DNA of 64,000 bases from Bacteroidaceae bacterium (GTDB taxonomy: Bacteria; Bacteroidota; Bacteroidia; Bacteroidales; Bacteroidaceae), in contig JAGCMB010000017.1 in assembly GCA_017646665.1 (NCBI GenBank), forward strand, positions 1-64,000, in the 5' to 3' direction. Both the position numbers and the translations under genes were made by a program. Below the pieces are notes generated by a model that had not been told where the DNA came from, made no database searches, and saw only the letters and a program-made list of their open reading frames with translations. Positions 8,745 through 50,212 of this stretch are shown one piece after another. The first letter of the stretch is position 1, and the number at the start of each line of letters is the position of its first letter.

Positions 8745-8749
8745 CAACT

Positions 8750-11700: not shown

Positions 11701-11785
11701 CGCAGGGTATAGTGCCGGTATATATTTCTATATGGCAACAGATGTAGCCGGTTTCAAAAAGACCGGTAAACTGCTTGTCAAGTAG
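8750..11785 (+). CDS. Secreted BNR/sortilin-type beta-propeller protein, paralogue of the preceding gene
   Basis: 1011 residues with the same architecture as its upstream neighbour: signal peptide ending in NAQ, a conserved N-terminal SRDTKQVVNHFRRF segment, Asp-box repeats (SSDKGESW, STDGGKSW, SVDGGASW), a PKD-like segment (TYDIALTVTTPAG) and a C-terminal sorting-like domain ending GYSAGIYFYMATD...GKLLVK. Shared blocks such as LSEAPGGEDYVY and GWNEDVM.GGR show that the two genes arose by tandem duplication. They have diverged strongly, so the duplication is old. The gap of 5 bp upstream and 11 bp downstream supports an operon with the TonB-dependent receptor. Function unknown; the propeller could bind a protein or glycan ligand. 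Confidence 0.85.
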   Translation: MRIGKIILSLLCISSMFCANAQESSVNDTYFTPYKLNYLPAGSPAWMAQLANPQGLDYNAMVDSFEVYLSNTPGARYKSRDTKQVVNHFRRFQKAYLPFVQADGIIRLPLASAYHSDIDNAAEEVRQERARKRAAGRNAAAPVEWNVISPIITYDYLHKKLSPAQSNIQRMRASRSNPNVLYCGSETGLVFRSSDKGESWQPCNDGEWMAGEITTIDISNTNPDRVLVGAGGVFWISNDGGVNWENITPAKATYARTSNACFHPGNDNIILAGDRAQLWRSTDGGKSWEWMLGGMVFDIRYSVQNPDVCYVAIEQENTVKMYKSVDGGASWNLLTLDGQPLISARIGLSEAPGGEDYVYLWACRRNHLSQPGPLYFSGPPLLYKSTDGGASFTVTDPTSQMEAVDKKGGQGYYDLVCTASATDPEVLLVGIIQLYRSTDGGKTLENVGGYYGRFDLHCDMQSIQTNGAGDTWLSTDGGVIYSNDFFLADAQPKLNGLYASEMWGFDQGWNEDVMVGGRNHNGNMSQIDRYNGVTLLMRGSERPTGYVFLSNPRKIAFSDSENVLMPDDWRDEFVPFLDYWTYPKESSQHGFYFEFDPRYAQCFYIVQESDRVDANTLWRTRDDGASFSSVYTFDDPINAIAVSRSNPDKIVASTWGRIYWSLDAGATFTEYNLPDEMTYSICYKLAIHPTDENEIWVADGNAGGFWRTVDNGDSWEKIDNGLTIPNWEGKVEKHSIGRFFLTGNEKNAAYAIAHTLGYLNETYSTTRGRVLYRDDTTDGWINISDGLPKVVNLNRMLPFYKEGVIRLATNNGIWERELVDPQFRPIAQPMILNAGSGDNTQSGYPREIKLDSYSIVNQNGAEWHWDIHPAPLSISADNVRNPVITIAPDQTYDIALTVTTPAGSDTKCIKGMIKGSKPVPDATSVAAVMQGKDLLLSSGNVVVRGDDFRFVPRDLDGEVSLEIYDAKGNIVYSVVSQSEIEVSTAGYSAGIYFYMATDVAGFKKTGKLLVK

Positions 11786-15322: not shown

Positions 15323-16141
15323 ATGAGATGTGATAATTGTGGTTGGATGAATCCTGAAGGGGTTGAGTGTTGCCAAAAATGTAATCAGAAGTTGAAGGCT
15401 ATTCACGTTGAAGAGCCAAGTGTTGTCCGCGCACCAAAACCTGAACCAGCACAAGTGTCTGCTCCGGCAGTAATAAATTGTGATAAGTGTGGCCGTGAGT
15501 ATTCGTTGCAGATTCCGGCTTGCCCTCATTGTGGTTTCTCTAATCCTAAATTCAAGGAGAGTCCGGAACCCGTTGCCCCCAAGGCTTTTGATATGAACAA
15601 GACTGTTGCTTTTGGTGCCGGAATGGCTGCACCTCAGCCAGCAGCTCCTGTTGAAATGCCTCAGATTGCAGAGATGGACAAGAGTGAATTGAAAAAGACT
15701 ATGGTTGCCGGTAGAGAAACTCCGGCGACATCTCCTGTTCCCTCTACAATGCCTCCTTTTGCAACTCAGGACAAGAGTGAGCTTAAAAAGACTATGGTTG
15801 CCGGAAGGGAAACACCGTCAGCGCCACAGATGCCTCCTGTTGAAGCTCCACAATTTACACCTCCTGTAATAGAGCAGAGTGAACTCAAGAAGACAATGGC
15901 GGCTGGTGATTTGGCCTCTTTCCAGATTCCTGGCTACGTTGCTCCTAAAGTCGCTGACGCAGATTTGCAACATACCGTGATTGATGCTCCTGCCGTAGAT
16001 GCTGCTTTTGAATATAGCTTACAGTCTATGGATCACGGCACACAGAGTGTTGTGTCGTTGACTATAACTGCTTCGTCTGATATCTGTCTGAAGGCTGGTG
16101 ATATAATCCTTATCGCAGGAATGAGATACCGTGTCATTTAA
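15323..16141 (+). CDS. Double zinc-ribbon protein with five FHA-target-like Thr motifs
   Basis: 272 residues, no signal peptide, therefore cytoplasmic. Two zinc ribbons open the protein: CDNC...CCQKC (residues 3-20) and CDKC...CPHC (about 54-73). The middle is Pro/Ala-rich and carries DKSELKKTMVAGRETP twice (from residues 119 and 150) and a third variant EQSELKKTMAAG from 184. Related motifs occur as MNKTVAFG (Thr94) and LQHTVIDAP (Thr218). Thr94, 126, 157, 191 and 218 thus sit in a common [KH]-T-[MV] context. The C-terminal 60 residues look like a small beta-rich domain ending AGDIILIAGMRYRVI. The gene is first in the cluster, 10 bp before a kinase-FHA gene. I infer that the motifs are phosphorylated and bound by FHA domains. 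No named family recognised. Confidence 0.8.
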   Translation: MRCDNCGWMNPEGVECCQKCNQKLKAIHVEEPSVVRAPKPEPAQVSAPAVINCDKCGREYSLQIPACPHCGFSNPKFKESPEPVAPKAFDMNKTVAFGAGMAAPQPAAPVEMPQIAEMDKSELKKTMVAGRETPATSPVPSTMPPFATQDKSELKKTMVAGRETPSAPQMPPVEAPQFTPPVIEQSELKKTMAAGDLASFQIPGYVAPKVADADLQHTVIDAPAVDAAFEYSLQSMDHGTQSVVSLTITASSDICLKAGDIILIAGMRYRVI

Positions 16142-16151
16142 TCGTAACGAT

Positions 16152-17480
16152 ATGATGAACAAGACTGTAATACCTAAACGAATCGATTATTCGGATGGAC
16201 AGGTTGTCCTTTCTAAATATAAGATTATAAAAGCTCTTGGTGACGGAGCTTTTGGACAGGTATATAAGGTTTCGGACTTGCAGACGAACCAGGTATATGC
16301 TCTCAAGCTGTTGCGCTTGTGGGATGTTCCATCAGAAATTAGACAACCTCTCATTGACAGGTTCGATATGGAGTTCAAGACGGGCTTGATTCAAAGCCGT
16401 TATCTTGTTCATTCCTATGACTATGGCTTGCTTGAAGGTAATCCTTATATAGTAATGGAGTTCTGCTCGGGTGGCGACCTCTCGTCAAAAGTCGGCAAGA
16501 ATGATATTGATATATCAAAAGTATCGAGCGAGATTCTCGGTGGTTTGAACGACCTTCACTCCAATGGTAAGGTACACCGAGATTTGAAACCCGAGAATGT
16601 CCTCTTTAAGGCCGATGGAACAGCGGTGCTTGCCGATTTTGGTATTTGTGGCGACCGTAACAAACGAATGACCGAAAGAAATATCTTTGGAAAACCATAT
16701 CAAATATTCGGAACTTATGCGTATATGCCTCCCGAACAGGTGAACAGAGCCAGAGGCGAGGCAACTGTGTTGCCGACAACCGACGTGTTCTCTTTCGGAG
16801 TTATGCTGTATCAGTTGCTTACCGGTAAGTTGCCATTTGGCCCACTTGAAGACCAGAATGACCTTGTGCGTTATCAGAAACGCGGAAAGGCCGGTGATTG
16901 GGACCGTAACGCATTGATGTATGTGGAAAATGGAAGGGCTTGGGAAGTGGTTATTGAAGGATGTCTGCAACCTAACTTCAAGGAGCGATTCCAGAATGCA
17001 AATACAGTGTTGCGTCTTTTGCCGCAGTCGTCACATATAATGTCGCAGTCCGTGAGGCCGCAGGTCGTTGCTCCGGCACCAGTTGTTCCGCCAGCACCCC
17101 AGGCTCCGGCAGCCAATGCTTCTCTTGTATTGAAAATAATGCACGGCGAGGAGTTTGGCAAAATCTACAACTTGACACAGATGGCTGTGAGTACAAATAG
17201 AAAGCTCTTCACAATGGGCCGTACTTCACAAAACGATATACACATAGTGGAAACACAAAGCTCATATATCTCCCGTTTCCATTGCGTCTTGGAAACAGAT
17301 GCAAATTTCCGTGACTGGCGTATCATTGACGGACAGTGGCGTCCCGACGAGAGAGAGTGGGTGCGTTCGACCAACGGAACTTATGTCAATTCAACCGAGG
17401 TGACCGAGAAGGGCTTTTGGATGCAGGCCGGCGATATAATATCCATTGGTGATACAAAACTTAAACTTGAACAACAATAA
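16152..17480 (+). CDS. Ser/Thr protein kinase with C-terminal FHA domain
   Basis: Cytoplasmic Hanks-type kinase of 442 residues. With the ATG at 16152 the glycine loop GDGAFG starts at 31, the ATP lysine is Lys52 (YALKLL), the catalytic loop HRDLKPEN starts at 142 and DFG at 162; TYAYMPPEQ follows the activation segment. A Pro/Ala linker (about 303-322) leads to an FHA domain with GRTSQNDI (356-363), SRFH (374-377) and NGT (408-410). The N-terminus MMNKTVIPKR repeats the NKTV motif of the preceding zinc-ribbon protein, a likely autophosphorylation site. A GTG at 16131 would add seven residues but overlaps the upstream gene; ATG at 16152 is preferred. No transmembrane segment, unlike the second kinase of the cluster. 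Confidence 0.92.
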   Translation: MMNKTVIPKRIDYSDGQVVLSKYKIIKALGDGAFGQVYKVSDLQTNQVYALKLLRLWDVPSEIRQPLIDRFDMEFKTGLIQSRYLVHSYDYGLLEGNPYIVMEFCSGGDLSSKVGKNDIDISKVSSEILGGLNDLHSNGKVHRDLKPENVLFKADGTAVLADFGICGDRNKRMTERNIFGKPYQIFGTYAYMPPEQVNRARGEATVLPTTDVFSFGVMLYQLLTGKLPFGPLEDQNDLVRYQKRGKAGDWDRNALMYVENGRAWEVVIEGCLQPNFKERFQNANTVLRLLPQSSHIMSQSVRPQVVAPAPVVPPAPQAPAANASLVLKIMHGEEFGKIYNLTQMAVSTNRKLFTMGRTSQNDIHIVETQSSYISRFHCVLETDANFRDWRIIDGQWRPDEREWVRSTNGTYVNSTEVTEKGFWMQAGDIISIGDTKLKLEQQ

Positions 17481-17519
17481 ATTAAACAAACCTATTTATA
17501 AACCTAAACATTTATTACT

Positions 17520-19394
17520 ATGGCAGATCAAGTAAATTACAAACGCACATTGGCCGGTTCGGTAGGTGCTGGTGTAGGTGCTATTTTTAGTGCATCAGGT
17601 CGTACATATTACATCCTTGAGCACAAGACAACAACTGGTTATCACAATGCCGGTGACTCTGACAAGATTATCGTAGACCAGGTTGAGCTTGGTCGTGATT
17701 CAAGCTGTCAGGTACGTTTCGACGAGTCTTGCGAGACTGTTAGCCGCAAGCACGCAGCAATCGTACGCGAGGGCGATGGTTGGAAGATTATTCCACTTTC
17801 ACAGACAAATGCTACTTATGTAAACTCTGTTCCTGTTCAGGGTGAGAGAAAACTTAATTCAGGTGACGAGATTCGTCTTTCTTCACACGGTCCTGTTATG
17901 GGCTTCATCGTACCTCAGGGTGCAAGCAGCCTTGTTAAGAGCATCGGTATGACAGAGCGTATGAACCTCTTCCGCAAACAGGCACTTGCTCCTTATAAGA
18001 AAGGTTTGACAATTTTGACAGTTCTTCTTGCTATTGTTATCATCGGCTCAGTAGTTGCTGGTGTATTGGGTGGCCAGAAGATTGTTGAGCAGGGCAATGT
18101 TATTGCTGAACAGGGTAAGAACCTTGCTGTTCTTGAGGATCAGAGAGCTGAACTCGAGAAGGGCTTGTTGAACCAGAGAGATGAACTCGACAAGCAGTAT
18201 GAGAAGATTATGGAGCAGGAGGATTATGTAAATGACCTCCAGAAGCAGATTGAGGAGAAAGAGGCTGAGCGTCTTGCTGCTGAGCAGGCTATGGCTGAGG
18301 CTTCTGCTGCCGAGAGAGCTGCTCTCCAGGCACAGATTGATGCTGCAAATGAGGCTGCTGAGGCTGCAAAGAAGAACGCTGCCGCTGCTGCAAGCCAGCT
18401 CAGACAGTACAAGAAGGCTGCTGACGAGCAGAGTGCTGCAATCAAGGATCTCGAGAAGCAGATCAAGGAAACTGAAACAGCTATCGTAAAGGCTGAGGCT
18501 GCTCCTGCTGCTCCTGCTGCAGAGAAGGCTGCTGCTGTTGCCGAGAAGGCTGCTGCTCCTGCTGAAAATGCTTTGTTCTCTAACATCGAGGATTGCTACT
18601 CAGCTGTTTACTACGTCAAGATGGACAACGTACAGGTATATGACCGTTCAGGTACACTCAAATACCAGTTCGACATGACCGGTTTCGTTGGTGGTACAGG
18701 ATTTATGCTTGACGATGGTACATTCGTTACTGCACGTCGTGTTGTTGAGCCTTGGTTCTACTATACTTCAACTTCTATCGGTAGGGACGAGTATGGCCAG
18801 CACTGGACATTGGGCTACTTGCAGTACCTCACATACTACGGTTGGAAGATTGATGCTAACTTCACAGCATATTCTCCTGCAAAGACAAGCTTCAAGTTCA
18901 GAACAAGCGAAATGTCAACAAAGGAAATCACATCTAAGACAAAGGTTACAGATGTTGTTCCTGCAAAGCACGTCCGCAAGCTTGTTAAGTCTAACGCAAG
19001 AGATTTGTTCGTATATGACGACTCAAAGAATGACTGGGCTACACTTGGTAAGAGCGAGCAGCTTGCAAGCGTTAAGGGCTTGAAATCAGCTCCTGCAGCT
19101 TCTGTTACTCTTAACTCTGGTGAAGCAGTGGTTGCTCTTTGCTACCCATACAACGAGGGCTTCAAGAACTCTTTGAACGTTAACCCAGAATTGAGAAAGA
19201 ACACTGTTAACTCACCTGATTTGAACAATGTAGGTGTTATCGAGTTGGCTACAAAGCGTTACTACAAGGGCGCAGATGGTGCACCTGTTCTCGTTCAGAT
19301 TGACGGTGTATGGACTGTAGTAGGTATCCTTGGCCACACAGACTTGGAGTCAGACCGTGACTTCGCTGCGCCAATCAAGAATATCGCGCACTAA
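17520..19394 (+). CDS. FHA - transmembrane - coiled-coil protein with degenerate trypsin-like domain
   Basis: 624 residues. A cytoplasmic FHA domain (about 30-130) has LGRDSSC, SRKHA (75-79) and NATYVN in place of NGT. One membrane segment (about 163-185) follows, then a long Gln/Glu/Ala coiled coil (about 190-320), an Ala/Pro linker and a C-terminal trypsin/HtrA-like fold. There GGTGFMLDDGTFVTARRVV matches the region around the catalytic His, but Arg407 stands at the His position, and GADGAP (584-589) replaces GxSGGP, with Asp586 at the Ser position. ARDLFVY (around Asp495) may keep the Asp. The domain is therefore most likely a non-proteolytic binding module outside the inner membrane. Codon choice (AGA, CTC, AAG) resembles that of dnaK and suggests strong expression. 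A strong hairpin follows the stop. Confidence 0.85.
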   Translation: MADQVNYKRTLAGSVGAGVGAIFSASGRTYYILEHKTTTGYHNAGDSDKIIVDQVELGRDSSCQVRFDESCETVSRKHAAIVREGDGWKIIPLSQTNATYVNSVPVQGERKLNSGDEIRLSSHGPVMGFIVPQGASSLVKSIGMTERMNLFRKQALAPYKKGLTILTVLLAIVIIGSVVAGVLGGQKIVEQGNVIAEQGKNLAVLEDQRAELEKGLLNQRDELDKQYEKIMEQEDYVNDLQKQIEEKEAERLAAEQAMAEASAAERAALQAQIDAANEAAEAAKKNAAAAASQLRQYKKAADEQSAAIKDLEKQIKETETAIVKAEAAPAAPAAEKAAAVAEKAAAPAENALFSNIEDCYSAVYYVKMDNVQVYDRSGTLKYQFDMTGFVGGTGFMLDDGTFVTARRVVEPWFYYTSTSIGRDEYGQHWTLGYLQYLTYYGWKIDANFTAYSPAKTSFKFRTSEMSTKEITSKTKVTDVVPAKHVRKLVKSNARDLFVYDDSKNDWATLGKSEQLASVKGLKSAPAASVTLNSGEAVVALCYPYNEGFKNSLNVNPELRKNTVNSPDLNNVGVIELATKRYYKGADGAPVLVQIDGVWTVVGILGHTDLESDRDFAAPIKNIAH

Positions 19395-19448
19395 AAAAAA
19401 TAAATACCTTGATTTTTTGAATTAAGATTAGGGTATATACCTATAAAA

Positions 19449-19487
19449 GCGGTGGTGTCGTATCAAAATATTGCGACACCACTGCTC
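19449..19487 (+). terminator. Strong stem-loop after the FHA/pseudoprotease gene
   Basis: AGCGGTGGTGTCG (19449-19461) pairs with CGACACCACTGCT (19475-19487), 13 bp with one wobble, followed by a T-rich stretch at 19497-19502. It lies inside the gene cluster, 127 bp before the phosphatase gene. No canonical promoter is visible between it and that gene, so it may attenuate rather than end transcription. Confidence 0.7.
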
Positions 19488-19521
19488 CTACAAATATTTT
19501 TTATAATAAAATCATTAAAAA

Positions 19522-20538
19522 ATGAGAGTAAAACTGACCGCAGGGACAAACGTAGGTTGCGTTCGTACCAACAATGAAGATAATTTTATAACGAACATAG
19601 ATCTTAGTCGTCCCGATTGGTTCTTGCCTAAAGACGTATCCGAAGCCGTAAATCTGTGCGACGAAGGATGCGCTTTTGTCGTTGCTGATGGAATGGGTGG
19701 CTTGAACGCCGGAGAGGTCGCTTCGGCCATTGCAGTTGAGCACGTCAAGCAGGAATTTCTCAATGCCAACCTCAAGAAGATTGTAAAATCGGACAAGGAT
19801 GTTGAGAAGTTTATGCGTGAAATCGTAGAAAAAGCCGATGCTGCCATTAAAAAGAGAGTTGAAGAGGACTCTGAAACAAAGGGTATGGGTACTACTTTGA
19901 TTTTCGCTTGGGTTATCGGCCGTAAGGCTTATTTGTCGTGGTGTGGCGATAGTCGTGCCTATCTTTACAATCCTGCAAGTGGGTTGAAAAGAGTGTCAAA
20001 GGACCACTCTTATGTACAGGAGTTGGTCGATGCCGGCAAATTGGACGAAGATCTTGCTTTTGACCATCCGAACAGCAATATCATTACAAGATGTCTTGGT
20101 GATTTCAAAGACAGGGCAAAACCGGACTTTGCAACCGTTGCACTAAAAACAGGAGATAGAATTATGTTGTGCAGTGACGGTTTGTGTGGCTTGTGCAGAG
20201 ATGAGGAAATCAATGAAGTAATGAGAAATTTCTGCGAAGATATAGAGGTTTGTAAAAGGGAACTTATAAATGCTGCACTCAATGCCGGCGGTTATGATAA
20301 TGTTACAATTGCTCTTATGGAAGTGGTAGATGATGACAGTGCGGAAATTGCCGATACTTGTGATTTCTCTACAAAAAGGACAAAAAAGAAAAAGAAGAAC
20401 AAAAAAGGGGGCTCAGCATCTCTTTGGAAGATTCTTATTTTTATGATTATCCTATTGGTAATAATTGCTTTGGTTATGAAAAATACAGAATTGTTTGATG
20501 GAGGCATACGTGAAGCTATTACTAATGCTATTTCTTGA
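19522..20538 (+). CDS. PP2C-family Ser/Thr phosphatase with C-terminal membrane anchor
   Basis: 338 residues; removes phosphate from Ser/Thr residues placed by the cluster's kinases. The PPM metal-binding motifs are present: TNNEDN (17-21), VVADGMGG (53-60, Asp56), WCGDSRAYL, CSDGL and GGYDNVT. After the catalytic domain comes a very basic stretch (KRTKKKKKNKKG) and one membrane segment (about 301-319), leaving only about 19 residues beyond it. The enzyme is thus held at the inner membrane with its active site in the cytoplasm. It lies 38 bp before the second kinase gene. It plays the role that PppA plays in type VI secretion or Stp in Gram-positives; the partnership is inferred from position. 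Confidence 0.93.
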   Translation: MRVKLTAGTNVGCVRTNNEDNFITNIDLSRPDWFLPKDVSEAVNLCDEGCAFVVADGMGGLNAGEVASAIAVEHVKQEFLNANLKKIVKSDKDVEKFMREIVEKADAAIKKRVEEDSETKGMGTTLIFAWVIGRKAYLSWCGDSRAYLYNPASGLKRVSKDHSYVQELVDAGKLDEDLAFDHPNSNIITRCLGDFKDRAKPDFATVALKTGDRIMLCSDGLCGLCRDEEINEVMRNFCEDIEVCKRELINAALNAGGYDNVTIALMEVVDDDSAEIADTCDFSTKRTKKKKKNKKGGSASLWKILIFMIILLVIIALVMKNTELFDGGIREAITNAIS

Positions 20539-20576
20539 TATCATTCAATTCTACTAACAAATAAAACAATTCAAAA

Positions 20577-21596
20577 ATGCAAAACGTTGAAGGCGCCGTT
20601 TTTGACGGTAGATATTTATTGAAAGAGTTTAAAGGCAGCGGTAGTTTTGGCGAAGTGTGGTTGGCTGTTGACCAACAGACCGGAATAGAGGTTGCCATTA
20701 AGATATATATTGCAATGGATCCGCAGGGATTGGAGGACTTCATCAGGGAGTTCAGAATTTCATTCAATTTTAACCATCCTAATCTGTTGCACGCAAATTA
20801 TCTTGAGATTTGCAGGGATGACAACAACCGTCCTTACCTTGTTATGCCTTATTGTCCTCAAGGCTCGGCAAGTAAATACATTGGAAATATAACAGAAGAT
20901 GTCCTTTGGGTGTTCATCAGGGACGTGGCTGCCGGTTTGGCCTACCTGCACTCTCAGGAACCACCAATCATACACCAGGACATCAAACCCGACAATATTC
21001 TCATTGGTCCTAGCGGTGACTTTATGATTACCGACTTTGGTATAAGCAAGCAGGTGCGTTCAACCTTGCGCAAGAGTGCTGCACAGGTCGGTTCATCGGG
21101 TACAATTGCCTATATGGGACCCGAACACTTTGTAAACGGTTATTCTGCAATTAAAGCGAGTGACATTTGGGCTCTTGGAGCAACAATCTATGAGCTTGCT
21201 ATGGGTGATTTGCCATTTTGTGGCTATGGTGGTTCAATGTTGAACCACGGTGCTGATATGGCAGAACTTCCCGAGGCTGATTTCTCACGCGACCTTAACA
21301 AGATTATGCAGATTTGCTTGAGTAAGGAGACTTGGTCACGTCCGGCTGCAGAACAGCTTGCTGAGTATGCTGCAATGAAGGTGAAGGGCAAGAATCCTGA
21401 GCCATTGTGGCCCGAGGAGCAACAGCCTGAGCCTGTTGTTGAAACAGCTGCACCAGCAGTTGAGAACAACCAGGCAAACCAAAAAGCAAAGCCTGCAAAG
21501 AGTGGCGGTGGAGCCTTTTCTTGGTTCCTTGCAGCAGTCTTGGGCTTGGCTGCCGGTGCTGCAGCATCGTTGTATCTAGGCGGAATGCTTTTTTAA
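20577..21596 (+). CDS. Tail-anchored Ser/Thr protein kinase, non-RD type
   Basis: 339 residues. The kinase domain (about 12-265) has glycine loop GSGSFGEV (20-27), VAIK with Lys42, HQDIKPDN (133-140) and DFG (153-155), then GTIAYMGPEH. The catalytic loop reads HQD, not HRD, so regulation by activation-loop phosphorylation in the RD manner is unlikely. An acidic/Pro linker and a Lys/Gly-rich stretch lead to one membrane segment (about 314-336) at the extreme C-terminus, with no extracellular sensor domain. The protein is therefore anchored by its tail and must receive signals through a partner in the membrane, for example the FHA/pseudoprotease protein. Located between the phosphatase and the giant Ig-repeat gene. 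Confidence 0.92.
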   Translation: MQNVEGAVFDGRYLLKEFKGSGSFGEVWLAVDQQTGIEVAIKIYIAMDPQGLEDFIREFRISFNFNHPNLLHANYLEICRDDNNRPYLVMPYCPQGSASKYIGNITEDVLWVFIRDVAAGLAYLHSQEPPIIHQDIKPDNILIGPSGDFMITDFGISKQVRSTLRKSAAQVGSSGTIAYMGPEHFVNGYSAIKASDIWALGATIYELAMGDLPFCGYGGSMLNHGADMAELPEADFSRDLNKIMQICLSKETWSRPAAEQLAEYAAMKVKGKNPEPLWPEEQQPEPVVETAAPAVENNQANQKAKPAKSGGGAFSWFLAAVLGLAAGAAASLYLGGMLF

Positions 21597-21643
21597 AATG
21601 TGATAGTGACTAAAACATTATTACGGTTATAAACAGAAAAAAT

Positions 21644-24600
21644 ATGAAAGAATTTTGTAAGACAATATCCAAGCGAGCATTTTTGAGCCTTATGGCGCTT
21701 TTCTGTTCGCTGATAGTTGTTGCGCAGGAGGTAACAGTTACACCAGTGTTCAATGGCAATAGTGTCCAGAGCGCAGGTGTATATTATTCTGTCGTGGGAG
21801 CCCGAATTTCTCCTAACGTAGCAGTAAATACCCCCTATAAGATATCAGATGTAAAATTGACAGTCAAGCGTGATGGTGCCGTTATTTTAAATAACCATCC
21901 TAATGCGCCATTCGATGCAGCTGATGCCGGTCTTTATGAGTTGAGTGGAAATGTTACATTGACCTGGACCGAGAATGGTGCTACAAAGACCAAGTCGGTT
22001 GCGGTTCCTGTAACTAAAATCCAAATCATCAATCCTAAACTGACTTTGCAGAAAAATGCTTATGTCGTGGTTTCTGATGAGCCTTTTGGTGTGGATTTTG
22101 TTAGTGGAACAACTTTAGGTAGTTGGGAGATTGACTGGACAGTAGTTCCTGATGGAGCAAATGTAGAGGGTAACGCTTTAAACTTCACCTTCTCGCAAAT
22201 TAATAATTCTGATGAAATAGCCTGGCCGTTGTATACAGCCGATTGTAAGTATTATGTTGCCGGTACAGAATTGTATAGTAAGCAAGAAAACGTTACAGCA
22301 ATGGTTTATCCGGCACCAAAGTTTAATTACCTTGATTCAAAGAGTGTATTCAATACAGCCAAGGATACGACAATTACAATGGGCTTCAGTGTTGCCGGTG
22401 CGTACCCTGACGGATGGACTTACCAGTGGTTCAAGGATGGTGAAGCTATTACAGCACAGGAGAGTGGTAATGCCGATGTTCAACCATTTGAAATTCCTGC
22501 TATACAGACAAATAGCTTTACTCAGCGTTTTGAGGATTGGGTGTCTACAAATAAAGGATTGAATGGTGTATCCTCAAAACATTCATATACATTTGAAGCA
22601 TATAGCGGTGACGTGCTTACATTCGATTGGAGAGTAAGTAGCGAAGATGGATATGATTGGCTTAAAATAACTCTTGATGGACGTCAACTGTATTATAAGA
22701 GTGGAGTAGCCGAAGGTCGTCATAGCGAAACTATTACAACAGAAGGAGAACATACCCTTGAAGTGGAGTACATTAAGGACAATGGCGTTGGTGGAAACGA
22801 AGACTGTGGAGAAATCAAAAATATGCTTCTTGAAACAAAGAAAAGGAGATATGTCTACAAAGTCGTTGCGCAAAATCATTATACCGATGGTAGAGATTGG
22901 GGTACCTTTGAAAAGGAGTTTGTTGTAAATGTTTATCCCACAACAAGCATTGAGTACGTTTCGGATTCTGTTTACAATTTCTCACAAGAGAGTACATTCA
23001 CACTTGAGATTGCTACAGCTGGTGGTATGCAGGACGGTTGGAGATATTCTTGGAAAAAGAATGGCGAATTACTTGATTCAGAAGAGCCTAGCTTTGAATT
23101 TACAGCAACTCCTGAGGAGCAGTTCTTCGTGGATAGATATGAAGTGATTGCTGTCAACTATGCCGAGAATCATGACATCTTGGCTCAATATAGAAAAGAG
23201 TTTATCGTAAATGTATTCCCGGTTCCGACTGTAGATGTGCCTAAAGCATATTTCAACTATCTGGAGCTGGATACCACCATCAATCTTGAATTTGCAAAGA
23301 AGGGTGGTTTTCCACATGGTTGGGATGTCACTTGGAAAAAGAATGGTGTGGAGATGACATCCACTGCACCTGCGGCAGTACATACTAATAGCTATGGTGT
23401 AAAGACCAATACCATCTATTATATATCTCAGCCATACCACGATAAGGGTGTTGCTACATCGTGGTGTGTTGCCGATGGTGGTAACTCTTTGATATCGAAT
23501 GTTCAGCTGGAAACAGTTGCTAATGCATTTGATGTACGTCAGCAGTTTGCTTTTATCAGCAATGATAATGGAGCTACATACTATCTTTATCACGTAACTG
23601 AACAAAAGTATGTAAACAAAGAGGGCTCGCTCGACGAGCAACCGATAGATCCAATATATTTTAAGGATGCGGCATACGCTAATACTGTATTTATCTATTT
23701 CGATGAACAGCATCAAATAAATGTCAATAGTCTTCGTCATGTTGTTGTAGACAACTTCGGTACCCCAGATGGTGGAAACTCTTGTTTCCTTGAAGAGGTT
23801 GGTAGCCTGAATGTTAATGACCAAAATATTGAGGTTGCTTTGACACCAACAGGTATGCCTGTTGAGGATGTTTATGTTGCCCACGTGACAAATACGTTCT
23901 ATGGCAATGTATGGTTTGATAAAGAGTTCCATTTCTATGTCAATACATATCCTCATCCTGCGATTGAGTATACAACCGCTAGTGAATTCTACACAGCGAA
24001 TGATACAATTTTCCAGTTGGGTGTGCAGGTTGCCGGAGCTCGTGAGCAAGGTTGGATATACAAATGGATAAAGAACGGCTCTGTTGTAGCAGAGGATGCT
24101 AATAATACATTTGACGCTGAAGTAGCTCCTTCTGAAAGCGATTACTCGAATGTTTACACTGTAATTGCAACCAACAAAACAATGAATGGTGATACATTGA
24201 CTGTTCTAGAAAGAGAATTTGTTGTAAATGTATACCGTGAAGCTAGCATAAAGCACAAGAACGATAGACGTGTTTTCAATTATGCCAAAGAAACCGATGT
24301 TACTTTGGAGTTTGAGATATCTGGTGGTTACAGCGAAGGCTGGACATACGTTTGGCACAGGAACGGTGAGTTGCTTGACGAGTCCGGTAAACAGATTACC
24401 TATCGCGAGGTGCCAACAAATAAGCTTTTTACTAGTGAATATTCTGTAGTTGCAACAAATACGGCATTGAATGGCGATACATTGGCTGTTTGTCCAATAT
24501 CTTTTGATGTCAACATCTTCCCATTGACCAGTATAGAGTATACAACCGAAACCGAATTCAACACTGCTAAAAACGAAACATTTGTTTTGGGTGTACAGGT

Positions 24601-26545: not shown

Positions 26546-26557
26546 TAGGATTAGGCA

Positions 26558-28180: not shown

Positions 28181-28183
28181 AAG

Positions 28184-29116
28184 ATGGCAAATAAATTTAA
28201 ATGTAAAGATTGTAGACATTCATTTTCATTGAATGCTGGAAGTGAAAGTATATGCCCAAAATGTAAATCGGACAATATTGAACCGGTAAAGGGCTCAAAA
28301 TTCATTTGGAAACTGCTTTTGTTCATTGTTATGGCAGTAGTTGGTTTCTGTGCTACCGATGTACTCGTGTTGGGTAAATCAGGTGTCGGACTTGGAAAGG
28401 ACGTTACAGCGGTGGGTGTTTCTACCAATGACGTTTCAGCAGGTGCAGAAACCTCAACAGCAGATACTGTGGAGGTTGAAGGTACTGAAATTTCTGTTGA
28501 TGAGTCTGCATCAGCGGTTAATGAAACTTCAAAGCCTATGGAGCCAATCAATGCAGAATTTAATGTGTACGAGAAGAATCTTGCTGAAAATGGCTTTACA
28601 TTCTCTGTTGCAGTGCTTGCCGACTACGAGTCAGAGGTCGATTATTACAAGCTCTATTTGAAGGAGGATGATGAGAACCCTGTTCTGACATCAACCGATG
28701 GAACTTTCAAGAGTAATGAGTATTACACTGCCGACGGTAAGTATTTCATCCAGGCTTTCTACGAGAATGGCAATTCAACGCTTGTAAAGAGTATTGATGG
28801 CTTTGTGAAACCGGCCAAGGATGAGCCAAAGCAGGTTGCAAAACTTGAAATGAGCGAATTGCAGTCAAAGATTGACAAGTCATTCAAGAACCGTGGTGAC
28901 AGAAAGTGGTATGCAAGTGTCGGCAAGGGTGGTGACAAACGACTCGCTGACAAGATTACTGTAAAGAACACAACAAACGGCAAGACCTATACAAGTATTG
29001 CTGCGATGTTTGCCGATTGCTGGGTTTGTGCCAAGAAAATCAACGTCGAGAGCGTGACCTACAATGAGGCAAATAGCCGTTTGAATGCAATTACTATCAG
29101 TATCGTTAAAAAATAA
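28184..29116 (+). CDS. Zinc-ribbon membrane protein
   Basis: 310 residues. A short N-terminal zinc ribbon CKDC...CPKC (residues 7-28) faces the cytoplasm and is followed by one membrane segment (about 43-65, WKLLLFIVMAVVGFCATDVLVL). An acidic Ser/Thr-rich linker (about 70-125) leads to a folded outer domain of about 180 residues with FTFSVAVLADYESEVDYYKLYL and a C-terminal half rich in Lys. No known domain recognised. It is the second zinc-ribbon protein of the cluster, and its topology (cytoplasmic ribbon, periplasmic domain) suits signal passage across the inner membrane. The gene is 3 bp after the barrel gene and 3 bp before the next. Confidence 0.75.
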   Translation: MANKFKCKDCRHSFSLNAGSESICPKCKSDNIEPVKGSKFIWKLLLFIVMAVVGFCATDVLVLGKSGVGLGKDVTAVGVSTNDVSAGAETSTADTVEVEGTEISVDESASAVNETSKPMEPINAEFNVYEKNLAENGFTFSVAVLADYESEVDYYKLYLKEDDENPVLTSTDGTFKSNEYYTADGKYFIQAFYENGNSTLVKSIDGFVKPAKDEPKQVAKLEMSELQSKIDKSFKNRGDRKWYASVGKGGDKRLADKITVKNTTNGKTYTSIAAMFADCWVCAKKINVESVTYNEANSRLNAITISIVKK

Positions 29117-29119
29117 CAA

Positions 29120-29755
29120 ATGATGAAAAAATATTTGTGTTTAATCATTATGCTGTGCTCATTGTCTATCCCGACAATGGCACAGAATGATGTGACAAAG
29201 GGAAACCAGCCGTTCCGTTTCATTTATCTGGTGCACGACCACACTTCACCGGTCAGTACATTGATTAAGACACTTCGTGAGGTTGAAAGACACGCACGAC
29301 AGTATAATCAGATATGCCTTATATATATGGCAAACGGAAACAACTACTATCTTGCACAAATCAATACCGAGAAGGATAACCGTGACGATTTTGACAAGAT
29401 TCTCGAGGCTTTGAACAACAAACTTTCGCACGACGTGAACATTCAGGCCGACATTGTTTCTATTCTTGACCTTTTCAATGAATACGAAGTGGTGACCGAT
29501 GCCGGTGATTTGGTCTATAAATCGGTGGTACTTGACTTCTTCCTGACATCACATTTCTGTGACAATGGATATGCCGAAAAGTTTATTGTGCCTCTCTATC
29601 TGGCATTTGACGTGCCCAATTTGCCCAATAAATTTGAGTTCAATGTGTATGTGAACTCTGCGGGTAACGACAACTATGATTTCAGTGGTGAGAGAATCTT
29701 TGGAAATAAGAATTACAACTCGATAAATGAGAATGTTTTGATAATGGATTATTAA
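29120..29755 (+). CDS. Small secreted protein of unknown function
   Basis: 211 residues; signal peptide about 1-22 (ending TMAQN). The mature part starts with a hydrophobic strand FRFIYLVHDH followed by a helix and a second strand QICLIYMANG, giving an alternating alpha/beta pattern like a von Willebrand A or Rossmann-like fold, but without an evident metal site. There are two adjacent ATG codons (29120 and 29123); either may be used. It lies between the zinc-ribbon membrane protein and the VWA protein with 3- and 11-bp gaps, so a shared role in the envelope is likely. Function is not recognised. Confidence 0.7.
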   Translation: MMKKYLCLIIMLCSLSIPTMAQNDVTKGNQPFRFIYLVHDHTSPVSTLIKTLREVERHARQYNQICLIYMANGNNYYLAQINTEKDNRDDFDKILEALNNKLSHDVNIQADIVSILDLFNEYEVVTDAGDLVYKSVVLDFFLTSHFCDNGYAEKFIVPLYLAFDVPNLPNKFEFNVYVNSAGNDNYDFSGERIFGNKNYNSINENVLIMDY

Positions 29756-29766
29756 TTTGTTGATAT

Positions 29767-32157
29767 ATGAAAAGAGTATTTTATATCCTATTATTTGTTT
29801 TTGCGTATTCTTTGTCAGCTGTAGCGCAGATTGAGTTGCCCGACAAGGTGAGCGCTTTCCTTCCCGATTGTTTGAAAGAACGTCTTATTACAGAACGTAG
29901 CCTGTCAAAGATTTCAAAGGCCAACGGCTATGGACAAAACGCAAGTACAGGTGAGAAGAAGTTCTGGAATGTGTTCAGTGACAGAGCCGACAATTTGGTG
30001 TATTCGCAGCCTGCGAAGTCATCTAGCGTTGTTACAAAGTTGGTGTTCAACCAGCGAGTGAGAATTGCTCAAATCAAGAGTGGCTTTGCTCTTGTATATG
30101 AGGAGCCCAATATTGGCCTTGGATATCCTAACATCTCTCAGGACGCAAAAGCTAAAGGTGCACTAGGTTGGGTACCTATGGAAAATCTGCTTCTATGGCA
30201 TTCTTGCCCTGCAAACGACCACGGTATCTTGAACAAGGCTTTGCTTGTGCTTAACCTTAACAAGGCCGGCGGTGGCGATATTGAATTTATGTGTAAGAAC
30301 CCCGAGACAAAGGTAGGTGCCGAGAATATCGAGAGTACAATCGACTTCTACTTTGTGATGAAGAAAGACCCAAAGACCGGTCTTGTGCTTCTTGCTTCAC
30401 AGAGTTCTATGGAGGGTGACTCAGACCAGGTGTTGTATGGTTGGGTCGACAGCAGCTCCTATACTCCTTGGAACCAGCGTTCTTGTCTTGAGTACAACTG
30501 GGACCCCATTACAATCGAGGACCACTTGAAGGGAAAAACTGCCTCTTTCTATGAGGACAAGGAACTTACAGTGCTTGCTTCACCGGGATGTAAATATGGT
30601 GAGAACCAGGGTGGTTCGTTGGATACTCCATATCGTATAGATGGTCACCGTCTTCGTATGCCTATCCACGATAATGACAGCAATAACGATGACTTGTACA
30701 AGATTACATACTTTGCTTCACCCGACGGCTCTTATAACATCGAGGAGGCTGCAAAGCTCGAAGAAGAGAGAAACAGACTTATTGACAATGCTGTCAAGAA
30801 TACAAAGAATGTGAACCTGATTGTTGTTGTTGATGGTACAAAGTCAATGGATAAGCACTTCAAGATTCTTCACTCAGCTATTGTTGAGGCTTGTAAGCGT
30901 TATGTAAGTGACAAGTATAAGTTGCGTCTTGGTCTTGTCATTTATCGTGACTATCCCGATAAGGAGCACCTTTGCGATGTTGTGCCTTTGACAACTGTTG
31001 ACGACCCTCGTCTGACAGAATTCTTCAGAACAGGTGGCCCTTACGGTATCACTAGTACTCCCGGTGATGACTATCCCGAGGCTTTGTATGTGGGTTTGAA
31101 TGCTGCTCTTAACGCAGAGAAGATGCGTTATACCAAGGAAGAGAGTAACCTGCTTCTTGTAGTCGGTGACTGTGGTAACCGTTGGGACGATGCGCGTGAC
31201 CCCGACCTCGACAAGATAAAGAAGAAGATGCTCGAAAACAATATCAACCTTATCAGTTTCCAGGTTCACAACGAGGAAAGACCCGGTGTTGATGCTTGGC
31301 TCGACTTTAACTTGCAGATGACCGACCTTATCTTGAGTAACGTTGAGATGAAGTATTCTGAAACAGGTCAGAGCGGTGAGTTCGTGGAATCTTCCGACGG
31401 CAACGGATACGACTTCAATGTGAAAGAGGGTAGTGCATACTATGTTGCATCAATGCGTAACCCACAGGTTGGCGACTCTATGCCTATCATTGAACTCGAG
31501 AACCTTATTGCAAAGAATATAGAGGTGTTCTCCGGTGCTATCGGAAAGCAGTTGAACGCTCTTATCAACGGTTACAAAGTCAACAAGGACTCTTCATCTG
31601 TTGGTGGTCAGCGTTTCGACGAGAACTTCCTTAAGGGCAAGCTCGGTAGTGAGCGTTTCGAGGTGTTGAGAGCTGCAAGTACTCTTTGTGCGCTTTCAGG
31701 ATATACCTTGAAGAAAGACCCTGCATCAGGTGCTGATTTCTACAAGCCTGTAATCTTCATTGAGAAGGCTGAGTTCGAGAAGATGTTGAACCAGTTCCGT
31801 AAGGTATACGATGCTACACGCGGTAGCGATGAGCGTGAGGCATATATCGGTGCTATGAAGCAGTTGCTCAACAGTATGGTGCCCGATATGACTCCCGAGG
31901 AGATGAACAAGCTCGGTAACACATACATCACAAATCTTGTTGCCGGTTTGAACGTTTCTACACAGGCTCTTCAGGACCGTTCACTTGAGGATATCGGTGA
32001 CCCTAACGTTGTAAAGCCACAGGAGTTCAAGAGAATTGTGAGCTCTTTCAACCGTAAGTTTGAGATTCTTGACAACATCTATCGCTCAAGCTACGACTAT
32101 GTATTCACAGCAAATAACCAAACATATTATTGGATTCCTGTTGAGGAGTTGCCCTAA
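29767..32157 (+). CDS. Exported SH3-like/VWA-domain protein, TssR-like layout
   Basis: 796 residues with signal peptide (about 1-21). An SH3b-like segment (about 75-145, VYSQPAKSSSVVTKLVFNQ region ending GALGWVPMENL) is followed by a von Willebrand A domain at about 350-520. Its metal site is DGTKS (356-360), a variant of DxSxS with Thr in the second place, and GDCGNRWDD gives a second acidic cluster. A helical C-terminal third follows. Signal peptide plus SH3-like plus VWA order recalls TssR of the Bacteroidetes type VI system, but no other type VI gene is present, so the resemblance is only structural. It directly precedes the ABC transporter genes (12 bp). Probably a periplasmic or outer-membrane-associated scaffold of this cluster. 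Confidence 0.8.
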   Translation: MKRVFYILLFVFAYSLSAVAQIELPDKVSAFLPDCLKERLITERSLSKISKANGYGQNASTGEKKFWNVFSDRADNLVYSQPAKSSSVVTKLVFNQRVRIAQIKSGFALVYEEPNIGLGYPNISQDAKAKGALGWVPMENLLLWHSCPANDHGILNKALLVLNLNKAGGGDIEFMCKNPETKVGAENIESTIDFYFVMKKDPKTGLVLLASQSSMEGDSDQVLYGWVDSSSYTPWNQRSCLEYNWDPITIEDHLKGKTASFYEDKELTVLASPGCKYGENQGGSLDTPYRIDGHRLRMPIHDNDSNNDDLYKITYFASPDGSYNIEEAAKLEEERNRLIDNAVKNTKNVNLIVVVDGTKSMDKHFKILHSAIVEACKRYVSDKYKLRLGLVIYRDYPDKEHLCDVVPLTTVDDPRLTEFFRTGGPYGITSTPGDDYPEALYVGLNAALNAEKMRYTKEESNLLLVVGDCGNRWDDARDPDLDKIKKKMLENNINLISFQVHNEERPGVDAWLDFNLQMTDLILSNVEMKYSETGQSGEFVESSDGNGYDFNVKEGSAYYVASMRNPQVGDSMPIIELENLIAKNIEVFSGAIGKQLNALINGYKVNKDSSSVGGQRFDENFLKGKLGSERFEVLRAASTLCALSGYTLKKDPASGADFYKPVIFIEKAEFEKMLNQFRKVYDATRGSDEREAYIGAMKQLLNSMVPDMTPEEMNKLGNTYITNLVAGLNVSTQALQDRSLEDIGDPNVVKPQEFKRIVSSFNRKFEILDNIYRSSYDYVFTANNQTYYWIPVEELP

Positions 32158-32169
32158 AAAAGATATTTT

Positions 32170-33045
32170 ATGAAGAAATTGTTTGAAATAAAGAACCTGC
32201 GTTGCTCTTATGACAAGAAGTATGTCGAGGGTGCATCGAAAGTCGTTCTTGAAATAAATAATCTGGTCATACCACGCGGTAAGAAAATCTTTATTGTAGG
32301 TGAGTCGGGTGTCGGCAAGAGTACAATCCTTGAGACACTTGGTTTGATGAACAACACTATTGTGCCCGATGCCAATGCTACCTTCCGTTTCTATGATAAA
32401 GACGAGAATCCAAAGGACTTGGCTGCATTGTGGGGTATGAACAGTGACAAGAAATTGTCAAACTTCCGTCTGCAGAACTATAGCTTCATATTCCAGAGTA
32501 CAAATATGATGCATAACTTTACAGCATACGAGAATGTGACATTTACACGTATGTTGCAGGGCTTTACAAAGTTCTCTTGTTTCCGTCGTGCCCGCAAGTT
32601 GCTCGATGAGCTAGGCCTTGAGCACGTTGATGAGTCGCGTATGGCACACGAACTCTCGGGTGGTCAGCAGCAGCGTCTTGCATTTGCTCGTGCAATCCTG
32701 CCCGACTTCTCGGTTCTATTTGGTGACGAGCCCACAGGTAACCTCGACGGCGTGAATGCGGTAAAGGTGATGGAGATTCTATCCAAGAAGATGACTGAAC
32801 TTGACGAGGCGTCTGCAATTATAGTTACTCACGATATGCATCTTGCAGTGACTTTTGCTGATGTTATCATCAAAATCAGAAAACAGGTGCGTGAGAAGAA
32901 ACGTCCTACCGACGAGGATGTGACATATGGAGTTATTGATGAGTCTTGTGTATTTACTCCACACAACGAGGATTTCGATGGTTGGACAAATGGCTCAAGT
33001 ATCTTCCCGACAAATGTCTTTGAAGATTTCTTACGTAGAAAATAA
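32170..33045 (+). CDS. ABC transporter ATP-binding protein, LolD/MacB type
   Basis: 291 residues, cytoplasmic. Walker A GESGVGKST (about 43-51), Q-loop in FIFQSTNMMHNF, signature LSGGQQQR, Walker B VLFGDEPT followed by GNLD and the switch His in VTHDMH. The EPTGNLD phrase is characteristic of the LolD/MacB/FtsE group, which drives mechanotransmission or lipoprotein release rather than import. A C-terminal extension of about 55 residues beyond the usual end carries no motif. It pairs with the FtsX-like permease 27 bp downstream. In the type VI threonine-phosphorylation pathway a LolD/LolE-like pair (TagT/TagS) acts upstream of the kinase; an equivalent task here is inferred. Confidence 0.93.
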   Translation: MKKLFEIKNLRCSYDKKYVEGASKVVLEINNLVIPRGKKIFIVGESGVGKSTILETLGLMNNTIVPDANATFRFYDKDENPKDLAALWGMNSDKKLSNFRLQNYSFIFQSTNMMHNFTAYENVTFTRMLQGFTKFSCFRRARKLLDELGLEHVDESRMAHELSGGQQQRLAFARAILPDFSVLFGDEPTGNLDGVNAVKVMEILSKKMTELDEASAIIVTHDMHLAVTFADVIIKIRKQVREKKRPTDEDVTYGVIDESCVFTPHNEDFDGWTNGSSIFPTNVFEDFLRRK

Positions 33046-33072
33046 GGATAACTTGTTGAAATTGCATACAAT

Positions 33073-34632
33073 ATGGTAAAAGAATATCTAAAATTGTTGG
33101 CGCAACGCGAGAGCAAGGTGGTGCTTGGTAAGTACTACTCCAATATGTGGATTCTCGCAATTGTGTTCATTGCTACATTTGTATCCATTGCTTTCAGTAA
33201 TGGAAGTATGATATATCTTGAGGAGAAAATGAACGACCCATTTACAAACTGGGTCGACATTCCAAAGGATAATGAGAACTCGAACTTTGACCGTTTCAAG
33301 TCGGTTCTTGAGGACGAGGAGATCTGCAAGCAGTTCTCTATTAAACGTGTTCAGTATGATTACTATCTCTCATTGAATATTTTCAACAGGGAGAATAATA
33401 GTACTCACTATCTGCGTTGCCGTTATTTCGGTGATATGGACTCTACCGAGATTGTAAATGCCATTCTTGCCGAGGATAACATTGTGAATGATTGTCGCAT
33501 CGACCGCAGCGTGCAGATCAACAACTCGTTGGGTGTTATAATGACTGCCGATGCTATTCAGCGTCTTGGTTACTCAACAGACAGTCTGCCTACCTATGTG
33601 AACTATTGTGCTGCGAATATGTTTGCCGACTCACTGTTTGGCGTTACATTGCACAATGGCAAGTATCTTCCAATGCCTCTGCCTGTGCTTGCCGTAGTAA
33701 AGAGATTGCCTTCGAACTTGGACTTCATCGCATCGAGCCGTTTGTATAACGATATCTCAAATCAGGTTTTTGAGTTGAAGTCACATCCTGAATATCTCGA
33801 GAATATTCTCTTTAGCGTGAAGAACGGATATGAGGAAACTTTCAAGCAGAAACTAAAAGAGATTGATGTTCCTGAAGGTGTTCCCGCTATGACAATCTAT
33901 CCGGCAGTCAAGGGTTCTCACAGCAACATCAAGAACTGGCGTAATGATGAATTGTTCCAGATTTATTTCGGTTATGACAAACTGCCCGACAGCTTCTACA
34001 TTGATATCTGCAATAAGATTACAGCAACTTGTGATGCTGAAGCAGTGAAACGTGTGTATGGCTATGTAGAGAATAAGACATACCCGGGTGCCGGTGAGTT
34101 CCTCTCTGTAACATTCTCGTCACTCGATGCAATCCGTGCTTTCGAGAAGTTTGCAAAAGATAACTACGACGTGAGAATCGATATGTCATTGGTGAACTCT
34201 AAGGAGAACTTCAACGCTGTCAGCGTTATGGCGAACATCCTTTCTTGGGCAATGATTATCTTCTCAATCATCTGTATCGTAATGTTCATTGTGAATATGT
34301 TGCAGAGTTACTTCCAGAAGGTTAAGCGTAATATGGGTACATTCAAGGCGTTCGGTATCAACTCTTCTGAACTTATCAGAGTGTACGTGTTTATTATGTT
34401 GGCTATTGTGGTTGTAGCAATCCTTATGGCTCTTGCCGTTTCTTGGATGGCCGAACTGACAATGCCTATATTCGGATTTGTAAGGGAAGGTGGCTTCAAC
34501 TACCTCTCACTCTGGAATGAGAAGACAATGTGGTCTATCGGTATCATTGTGCTTTGTACAGTTGTGACAGTATGTCTTGTAATGAGCAAACTGTTGAAGC
34601 AGACTCCTGGTGATTTGATTTATGACAGATAA
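33073..34632 (+). CDS. ABC transporter permease, FtsX/MacB fold
   Basis: 519 residues. One N-terminal membrane segment (about 27-47), a large periplasmic domain of roughly 330 residues and three C-terminal membrane segments (about 382-408, 435-465 and 475-497) give the FtsX/MacB topology. The phrase MGTFKAFGINSSELIRVYVF in the coupling region is typical of the family. Length is above the usual 400 because of the enlarged periplasmic domain. It ends the 12-gene cluster and is followed 22 bp later by a strong bidirectional terminator. With the ATPase upstream it would form a homodimeric mechanotransmitter that could pass envelope signals to, or be controlled by, the kinase/FHA proteins; this link is inferred. 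Confidence 0.9.
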   Translation: MVKEYLKLLAQRESKVVLGKYYSNMWILAIVFIATFVSIAFSNGSMIYLEEKMNDPFTNWVDIPKDNENSNFDRFKSVLEDEEICKQFSIKRVQYDYYLSLNIFNRENNSTHYLRCRYFGDMDSTEIVNAILAEDNIVNDCRIDRSVQINNSLGVIMTADAIQRLGYSTDSLPTYVNYCAANMFADSLFGVTLHNGKYLPMPLPVLAVVKRLPSNLDFIASSRLYNDISNQVFELKSHPEYLENILFSVKNGYEETFKQKLKEIDVPEGVPAMTIYPAVKGSHSNIKNWRNDELFQIYFGYDKLPDSFYIDICNKITATCDAEAVKRVYGYVENKTYPGAGEFLSVTFSSLDAIRAFEKFAKDNYDVRIDMSLVNSKENFNAVSVMANILSWAMIIFSIICIVMFIVNMLQSYFQKVKRNMGTFKAFGINSSELIRVYVFIMLAIVVVAILMALAVSWMAELTMPIFGFVREGGFNYLSLWNEKTMWSIGIIVLCTVVTVCLVMSKLLKQTPGDLIYDR

Positions 34633-48031: not shown

Positions 48032-48043
48032 TTGAGGTTCCTC

Positions 48044-50204: not shown

Positions 50205-50212
50205 CGATTGTT

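What the first reader, a model, noticed from the sequence alone, without database searches (positions are those of the whole stretch)
15323..34632. Stand-alone threonine-phosphorylation/FHA envelope system of 12 genes
Seen: two Hanks kinases, a membrane PP2C phosphatase, two FHA proteins, two zinc-ribbon proteins, an Ig-repeat surface protein, a barrel protein, a secreted protein, an SH3-like/VWA protein and a LolD/FtsX-type ABC pair, all on one strand and mostly with gaps under 50 bp. Known: in type VI secretion of Pseudomonas, TagQRST (including a LolD/LolE-like ABC pair), PpkA, PppA and Fha1 form a threonine-phosphorylation pathway that reacts to envelope damage. Inference: the window holds an analogous pathway without a secretion apparatus, in which envelope components signal to FHA proteins inside. 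I do not know a described system with this set.
Basis: partly seen in the sequence, partly recalled or inferred. Interest (0 to 1): 0.92.

Follow-up and report, generated by a model that had tools for sequence, protein, structure and literature searches.

The report
Stand-alone relative of injection-system anchor
Twelve neighbouring genes in a likely gut Bacteroidales genome encode a relative of an anchoring protein of the type VI injection machine, although that machine's sheath gene was not detected there; the core of the block recurs in the same order in more than two dozen related genomes, and it would let the cell act on a giant surface protein through an ATP-driven envelope complex switched by protein phosphorylation.

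Summary
In detail: twelve same-strand genes, 10 of 11 gaps under 50 bp. The "secreted protein" has a predicted VWA fold, the barrel is predicted as NTF2-like plus OmpA-like, and the FHA-protease lacks catalytic Ser and His. Barrel, VWA2 and TssR recur in 29 of 29 long Bacteroidales loci, ABC and FtsX in 28, with a large ORF beside them in 27. Kinase, PP2C and FHA are less constant (27, 23, 22); around ten more distant loci they were found in 0, 0 and 1. The sheath gene TssC was not detected in the window's genome nor in 30 of 31 other locus genomes. Two distant stand-alone loci also carry a TssP homologue. This runs against the published statement that membrane-complex homologues are not detected outside T6SS loci. 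In two same-genus genomes the flanking genes adjoin without the locus. Function is unproven; I propose an ABC-powered, threonine-phosphorylation-gated envelope complex acting on a giant surface protein.

The parts
15323..16141 (+). G01: zinc-ribbon protein with clustered Thr-Val/Met motifs, a possible phospho-threonine scaffold
   Evidence: Zn-ribbon DZR 1e-5, below cut-off; 6 T[VM] against 1.74 in shuffles, 0.26% of shuffles as high; of five orthologues two similar, two weaker (7-8%), one none
16131..17480 (+). G02: Hanks kinase with C-terminal FHA domain
   Evidence: Pkinase 7e-39, FHA 2e-13; HRDLKPEN and DFG present; no TM-like stretch
17520..19394 (+). G03: FHA domain, TM at 165-183, long middle stretch, trypsin-like domain without catalytic Ser and His
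   Evidence: FHA 4e-15; Ser position is Asp in 18 of 18 rows of this branch, His position Arg in 17 of 18
19522..20538 (+). G04: PP2C phosphatase with C-terminal TM
   Evidence: PP2C_2 6e-15; ADGMGG, CSDGL, DNVT motifs; TM 301-319
20577..21596 (+). G05: Hanks kinase with a C-terminal TM-like stretch
   Evidence: Pkinase 2e-43; HQDIKPDN and DFG; 317-335, score 1.86
21644..26545 (+). G06: 1633-aa repeat protein, probable surface protein and T9SS cargo
   Evidence: Por_Secre_tail 2e-4, below cut-off; hydrophobic N-terminus; SprA found in the genome
26558..28180 (+). G07: predicted NTF2-like domain plus OmpA-like 8-strand barrel
28184..29116 (+). G08: zinc ribbon, TM-like stretch, C-terminal domains likely periplasmic
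   Evidence: TM-like 35-53, score 1.72, marginal; family alignment A4 with optional ribbon; no significant match to TssP
29120..29755 (+). G09: predicted VWA-fold protein, likely secreted
29767..32157 (+). G10: TssR homologue (N-barrel, VWA, C-terminal domain), likely secreted
   Evidence: Pfam TssR domains; hhalign to seven T6SS TssR 100%, E 1e-42, 724 columns; hydrophobic N-terminus
32170..33045 (+). G11: ABC ATPase of the LolD/MacB kind
   Evidence: ABC_tran 1e-20; MacB 1e-35 and LolD 5e-33 in PDB
33073..34632 (+). G12: FtsX-type permease, four TM-like stretches with a large domain after the first
   Evidence: FtsX 3e-8; TM-like from 23, 389, 439, 486

Best explanation
The locus encodes a conserved module, built on a TssR homologue and an FtsX-type ABC pair, that is likely to span both membranes, to be switched by threonine phosphorylation and to act on a giant surface protein. 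Proposed arrangement: G11/G12 would use ATP to move the large outer domain of G12; G10, G09 and G08 would couple it in the periplasm; G07 would be the outer-membrane end; G06, probably exported by T9SS, would be the client at the surface. In the cytosol the kinases G02/G05 and phosphatase G04 would set the state of threonines on G01 and on the N-terminus of G03; FHA domains of G02 and G03 would read them, and G03, which has one membrane stretch and ends in a dead protease fold, would pass the state to the periplasm. Shown: gene content, sequence homologies, conservation of the order, TssC not detected. Predicted: folds and membrane stretches. Inferred: the complex, its topology, direction of signalling, client and energy use.
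For: Core order in 28 of 29 long loci. An FtsX profile, not seeded on TssR, found 4 of 296 phylum genomes, and all 4 have TssR-ABC-FtsX in a row; one is the window itself and one was known already, so two (G804, G706) are new. TssR homology 1e-42. TssC not detected in 31 of 32 genomes with the locus, with 5 of 198 order genomes as positive control. An ORF of 550 aa or more beside barrel or FtsX in 27 of 29; T9SS tails or SprB repeats in those of distant loci L100, L103, L081. SprA in own genome. Kinase and PP2C motifs present; Thr10 of G03 in 18 of 18 rows.
Against: No experiment and no complex model. The T9SS tail of G06 is below the Pfam cut-off, and two of seven scanned large neighbours had no family hit. 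Kinase, PP2C and FHA are not constant. The 32 loci were seeded on TssR, and some profiles were built from the same loci. L080 has a TssR homologue with no ABC gene beside it. G08 could not be tied to TssP.
Confidence: 0.5

Rival explanations
1. An envelope-stress sensor like TagQRST-PpkA: surface protein or barrel senses damage or contact, the ABC pair relays it, the kinases fire and FHA proteins answer inside the cell.
For: Same kind of parts (kinase with TM, PP2C, FHA, FtsX-type ABC pair). TagQRST-PpkA senses outer-membrane damage in Pseudomonas (PMC11881912, passages). An FGE-sulfatase domain, recalled for TagR, lies by one distant locus.
Against: I saw no cytosolic output gene that is constant in the loci; no kinase was found by ten distant loci; no FGE-sulfatase hit in the twelve proteins and no clear lipobox by eye.
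Confidence: 0.25
2. A degenerate or split T6SSiii whose sheath genes lie elsewhere or were missed.
For: TssR homologue present; T6SSiii loci are often split (PMC10781749 section 11); the genome is 92% complete.
Against: TssC not detected in 31 of 32 locus genomes; seven T6SS TssR form their own clade at 100/100; ABC-FtsX, barrel and VWA2 are not among the published T6SSiii parts.
Confidence: 0.04
3. An anti-phage defence island of kinase-kinase-phosphatase (KKP) or TerY/GAP1-N2 kind.
For: Two kinases and a PP2C; patchy presence (1 of 151 family genomes); empty sites in two same-genus genomes.
Against: PADLOC scan of ten of the twelve proteins gave hits on kinases, PP2C and G03 only, none on the envelope proteins; the core is envelope-type machinery.
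Confidence: 0.06
4. An exporter: the ABC-FtsX pair with the periplasmic and outer-membrane parts moves a lipoprotein, lipid or peptide out, MacB- or Lol-like, and the surface protein is incidental.
For: ATPase closest to MacB and LolD among PDB sequences; four TM-like stretches in FtsX layout.
Against: A large ORF is adjacent in 27 of 29 loci; the barrel model resembles OmpA, not a wide channel.
Confidence: 0.15

Closest known systems
TssNQOPR membrane complex of Bacteroidota T6SSiii (PMC10781749)
   Same: TssR homologue with matching domains; TssP homologue beside it in distant stand-alone loci L100 and L101
   Different: TssC not detected in 31 of 32 genomes, no TssN or TssO Pfam hit in the twelve proteins; an ABC-FtsX pair, a barrel, a second VWA protein and a large surface protein instead
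TagQRST-PpkA-PppA-Fha pathway of Pseudomonas H1-T6SS
   Same: Kinase with TM stretch, PP2C, FHA, FtsX-type ABC pair
   Different: No T6SS output, no FGE-sulfatase domain, no clear lipoprotein; TssR, VWA2 and barrel in their place
Type VII ABC systems: LolCDE, MacAB, FtsEX
   Same: ABC ATPase and four-TM FtsX permease with a large domain after TM1
   Different: Partners are VWA/TssR proteins; the permease profile has no PDB sequence match at E 1
KKP kinase-kinase-phosphatase module (PMC11341870, search listing only)
   Same: Two kinases and one phosphatase
   Different: FHA proteins and envelope core; no defence evidence
GAP1-N2 GTPase-centric systems with kinase, PP2C and vWA (PMC7159879, passages)
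   Same: Kinase, PP2C, vWA linked
   Different: No such GTPase hit; VWA proteins are likely secreted here

Membership tests
T6SSiii | TssC sheath gene in the genome | tested here: not met
   Own genome none; 1 of 32 locus genomes (G155, another contig), with 5 of 198 order genomes positive
T6SSiii | TssR homologue | tested here: met
   Pfam TssR domains, hhalign 1e-42
T6SSiii | TssN and TssO at the locus | tested here: not met
   No such Pfam hit in the twelve proteins up to E 0.1
T6SSiii | TssP at the locus | tested here: inconclusive
   G08 against TssP not significant (1.2%, E 0.044); TssP homologues only in distant loci L100, L101
T6SSiii | TssQ at the locus | not tested
   No TssQ model was used
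TagQRST-PpkA-PppA-Fha | membrane Thr kinase, PP2C and FHA protein | tested here: met
   activity and target residue not tested
TagQRST-PpkA-PppA-Fha | FtsX-type ABC pair | tested here: met
   homology to TagS/TagT themselves not tested
TagQRST-PpkA-PppA-Fha | TagR with FGE-sulfatase domain (domain of TagR is recalled) | tested here: not met
   No PF03781 hit in the twelve
TagQRST-PpkA-PppA-Fha | T6SS as output | tested here: not met
Type VII ABC transporters | ABC ATPase plus four-TM FtsX permease with a large domain after TM1 | tested here: met
   (TM by hydropathy only)
KKP defence | protection against phage by two kinases and a phosphatase | not testable with these tools
   PADLOC on ten of twelve proteins: hits only on kinases, PP2C and G03
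GAP1-N2 vWA systems | GTPase partner | tested here: not met
   No such Pfam hit in the twelve

The most novel reading that the evidence does not exclude
This is an undescribed class of Bacteroidota envelope machine, built from a TssR protein, a second VWA protein, an OmpA-like barrel and an FtsX-type ABC pair, that manages giant exported surface proteins. It is the stand-alone system from which T6SSiii drew TssR and TssP for its membrane anchor, and gut Bacteroidales have put it under a complete threonine-phosphorylation switch.
Probability: 0.45. Interest if true: 0.87.

Novelty: categorically new. Interest (0 to 1): 0.78.

Why it matters
[quoted passage not shown] their abstract says no homologues are detected outside T6SS loci (PMC10781749). 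Here TssR homologues, and in two distant loci TssP homologues, sit with an ABC-FtsX pair, mostly in genomes where TssC is not detected. That makes the origin of the anchor directly testable. It also offers a self-contained phosphorylation circuit in Bacteroidota with two kinases, one phosphatase, FHA readers and candidate targets in one gene block.

Tried and rejected
VipB PF05943 as a T6SS marker was uninformative: 0 of 198 Bacteroidales, so the zeros mean nothing; I replaced it by TssC PF17541, which rings in 5 of 198. G08 as TssP: hhalign 1.2%, E 0.044 and 0.3% against one sequence, not significant. A fixed phospho-motif [KR]T[MVIL].[AP]G shared across families: no G01-G05 relative in the loci has it, while one TssR copy and five unassigned proteins do; only a T[VM] excess in G01 held, and not in all orthologues. 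Viral contigs: 6 pattern stretches, no relative. Plasmids: no match. PDB by sequence: no G12 match at E 1, for G10 only five hits at E 0.025 or worse. Direction of descent: the tree has no outgroup, so whether T6SS took TssR or gave it is open.

Literature searched for a prior description; none of the listings names this system, but only open-licence PMC papers are held.
Full report
What is there. The twelve genes lie at 15323-34632 on the + strand, with 10 of 11 gaps under 50 bp, 295 bp upstream to an RmlD-type gene and 838 bp downstream to dnaK. G+C of the block's 2-kb windows is 0.40-0.46, against 0.44-0.52 in the flanks except one window at 0.41, so the shift is modest. The nearest protein to G10 is 98% identical and named from a Bacteroidaceae MAG; that the window itself is gut Bacteroidales is inferred from this and from the named loci.

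Conservation. A TssR-seeded scan of named genomes gave 32 loci, titled as Bacteroidaceae, Muribaculaceae, Prevotella, Alistipes and other Bacteroidales. Of these, 29 are over 14 kb; L002, L026 and L027 are short and were left out of counts. With the window's own sequences as queries, barrel, G09 and G10 are found in 29 of 29, ABC and FtsX in 28 of 29 (L007 is cut by its contig end), and G08 in 15 of 29. With profiles, several built partly from these same loci, G08 rises to 29 of 29; kinase is 27, PP2C 23, FHA 22, and all three together 22 of 29 (the PP2C profile is one sequence, so its count is a lower bound). An ORF of 550 aa or more adjoins barrel or FtsX in 27 of 29, by size alone. Of eight such proteins scanned, L003, L004 and L006 have weak T9SS tails (L003 and L004 also strong Ig or PKD repeats), L013 and L022 have BACON, L009 a weak PKD hit, and L014 and L031 no family.

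Independent and distant tests. The FtsX profile, not seeded on TssR, matched 4 of 296 phylum genomes and each has TssR-ABC-FtsX in a row; one is the window itself, G572 was known, and G804 and G706 are new. TssR_VWA matched 19 of 198 order genomes: two T6SS TssR (G200, G324), four stand-alone (G000, G237, G294, G336), and 13 weak VWA hits that I did not follow. Profile A1 matched 12 of 295 class genomes: G000, four stand-alone (G617, G439, G639, G572), five T6SS type, two weak and not followed. In ten distant stand-alone stretches an ABC gene is beside a TssR gene in nine, not in L080; the L081 fusion shows an ABC domain but no FtsX Pfam hit. Kinase, PP2C and FHA profiles hit in 0, 0 and 1 of the ten; three of these contigs are under 16 kb. 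Barrel relatives of L100, L101 and L103 match G07 at 97.4%, E 1e-11; G09 relatives of L100 and L101 at 86.7%, E 4e-6, over 107 columns. Distant loci L100, L103 and L081 hold large proteins with T9SS tails, L103 also SprB repeats.

T6SS. TssC was not detected in the window's genome (92% complete) and is in 1 of 32 locus genomes, on another contig. In the order and class samples it is in 1 of 8 stand-alone genomes (G617, other contig) and in 7 of 7 genomes with T6SS-type TssR. Three further TssC genomes (G227, G280, G357) gave no TssR_VWA match. Only one sheath marker was used; G804 and G706 were not tested.

Relation to the T6SS anchor. In a tree of 38 TssR rows (31 stand-alone, 7 T6SS; ten of the 29 long loci were left out to keep it small) the T6SS rows form one clade at 100/100, and group at 100/99 with stand-alone L100, L101 and L102. 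L102, L103 and one L010 copy are flagged as long rows of unsure place, and one T6SS row as odd in composition. L100 and L101 also carry TssP homologues (8e-22 and 3e-31 with a seven-sequence TssP profile; profile-profile 99.4%, 4e-21), though part of that score may come from the widespread PKD fold. Without an outgroup the direction is not settled; recruitment by T6SS is my inference. The published survey reported no membrane-complex homologues outside T6SS loci (PMC10781749: abstract, passages and section 11 seen), from 1253 complete genomes; most loci here are MAGs, which may explain the gap.

Mobility. The TssR query matched 1 of 151 same-family genomes, and none of the eight other same-genus ones in that draw. 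In G663 (dnaK 99% identical) dnaK is followed within about 770 bp by the RmlD gene (88.6%) and then, with one extra ORF, by the next window genes in order; in G046 an RmlD homologue (61.8%) lies about 160 bp from dnaK. So at these two sites the block is missing. Of the ten stretches fetched, two more (G665, G664) have the RmlD gene within 5 kb but other genes between, two were too short, and four differ. Gain and loss both fit.

How it may work. Constant parts point to an ABC-driven envelope complex; the variable part is a complete phosphorylation switch. G03 would join the two sides: FHA inside, dead protease fold outside, and an N-terminal Thr10 kept in 18 of 18 rows, which recalls GarA/OdhI, where the FHA domain binds the protein's own phosphothreonine (recalled). 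G01 has an excess of T[VM] motifs (6 against 1.74 expected; orthologues: two at 0.2-0.3% of shuffles, two at 7-8%, one with none). The client is likely the giant surface protein: SprA, recalled as the T9SS channel, is in the genome. Each of these functional steps is inference.

Rivals. A TagQRST-like sensor is the strongest rival; passages of PMC11881912 support damage sensing by that pathway. A split T6SS is nearly excluded. Defence is not supported by PADLOC, which was run on ten of the twelve proteins. An exporter remains possible.

Verdict. Membership in T6SSiii and in the TagQRST pathway each fails a tested feature; type VII ABC membership is met but covers only two genes. I found no description of this system in eight searches of a partial library, so I rate it categorically new with that limit.

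Noticed in passing
L077:2825-9682 (G237): SrfB (PF07520, 8e-215) and Virul_Fac (PF10139, 8e-148) genes, with one 329-aa gene between, lie directly beside the FtsX-ABC-TssR genes; a subtilase follows. Possible partnership of SrfBC with this module.
   Followed up: no
L077:14647-16125 and L079:9864-11249: TssR paralogues of 492 and 461 aa that match the N- and C-terminal parts of TssR but not the VWA part, next to full-length copies.
   Followed up: partly
L078:1550-2887 (G237): Protein with an FGE-sulfatase domain (2e-18), the domain recalled for TagR, near a stand-alone TssR cluster.
   Followed up: no
L003:18105-19625, L012:2721-4169: Double-FHA proteins with a trypsin domain keeping His, Asp and Ser, in loci that otherwise match the window: seemingly active and dead versions of the FHA-protease exist.
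   Followed up: partly
L042:3023-5545 against window G10: In the stand-alone profile the VWA metal-site motif DGTxSM is invariant over 14 rows; in this one T6SS TssR the aligned residues differ, so metal binding may be lost there.
   Followed up: no
window 5706-11785: Two adjacent about 1010-aa Sortilin/Vps10-type BNR-repeat proteins upstream, one with PKD and one with a weak T9SS tail.
   Followed up: no
window 48032-53496: NMT1/THI5-type ABC import genes followed by a Cache-HAMP-SpoIIE-HATPase protein, an unusual regulator beside a transporter.
   Followed up: no
L012:4193-5872: A TonB_C-domain protein (6e-15) among the FHA and kinase genes of an Alistipes locus.
   Followed up: no
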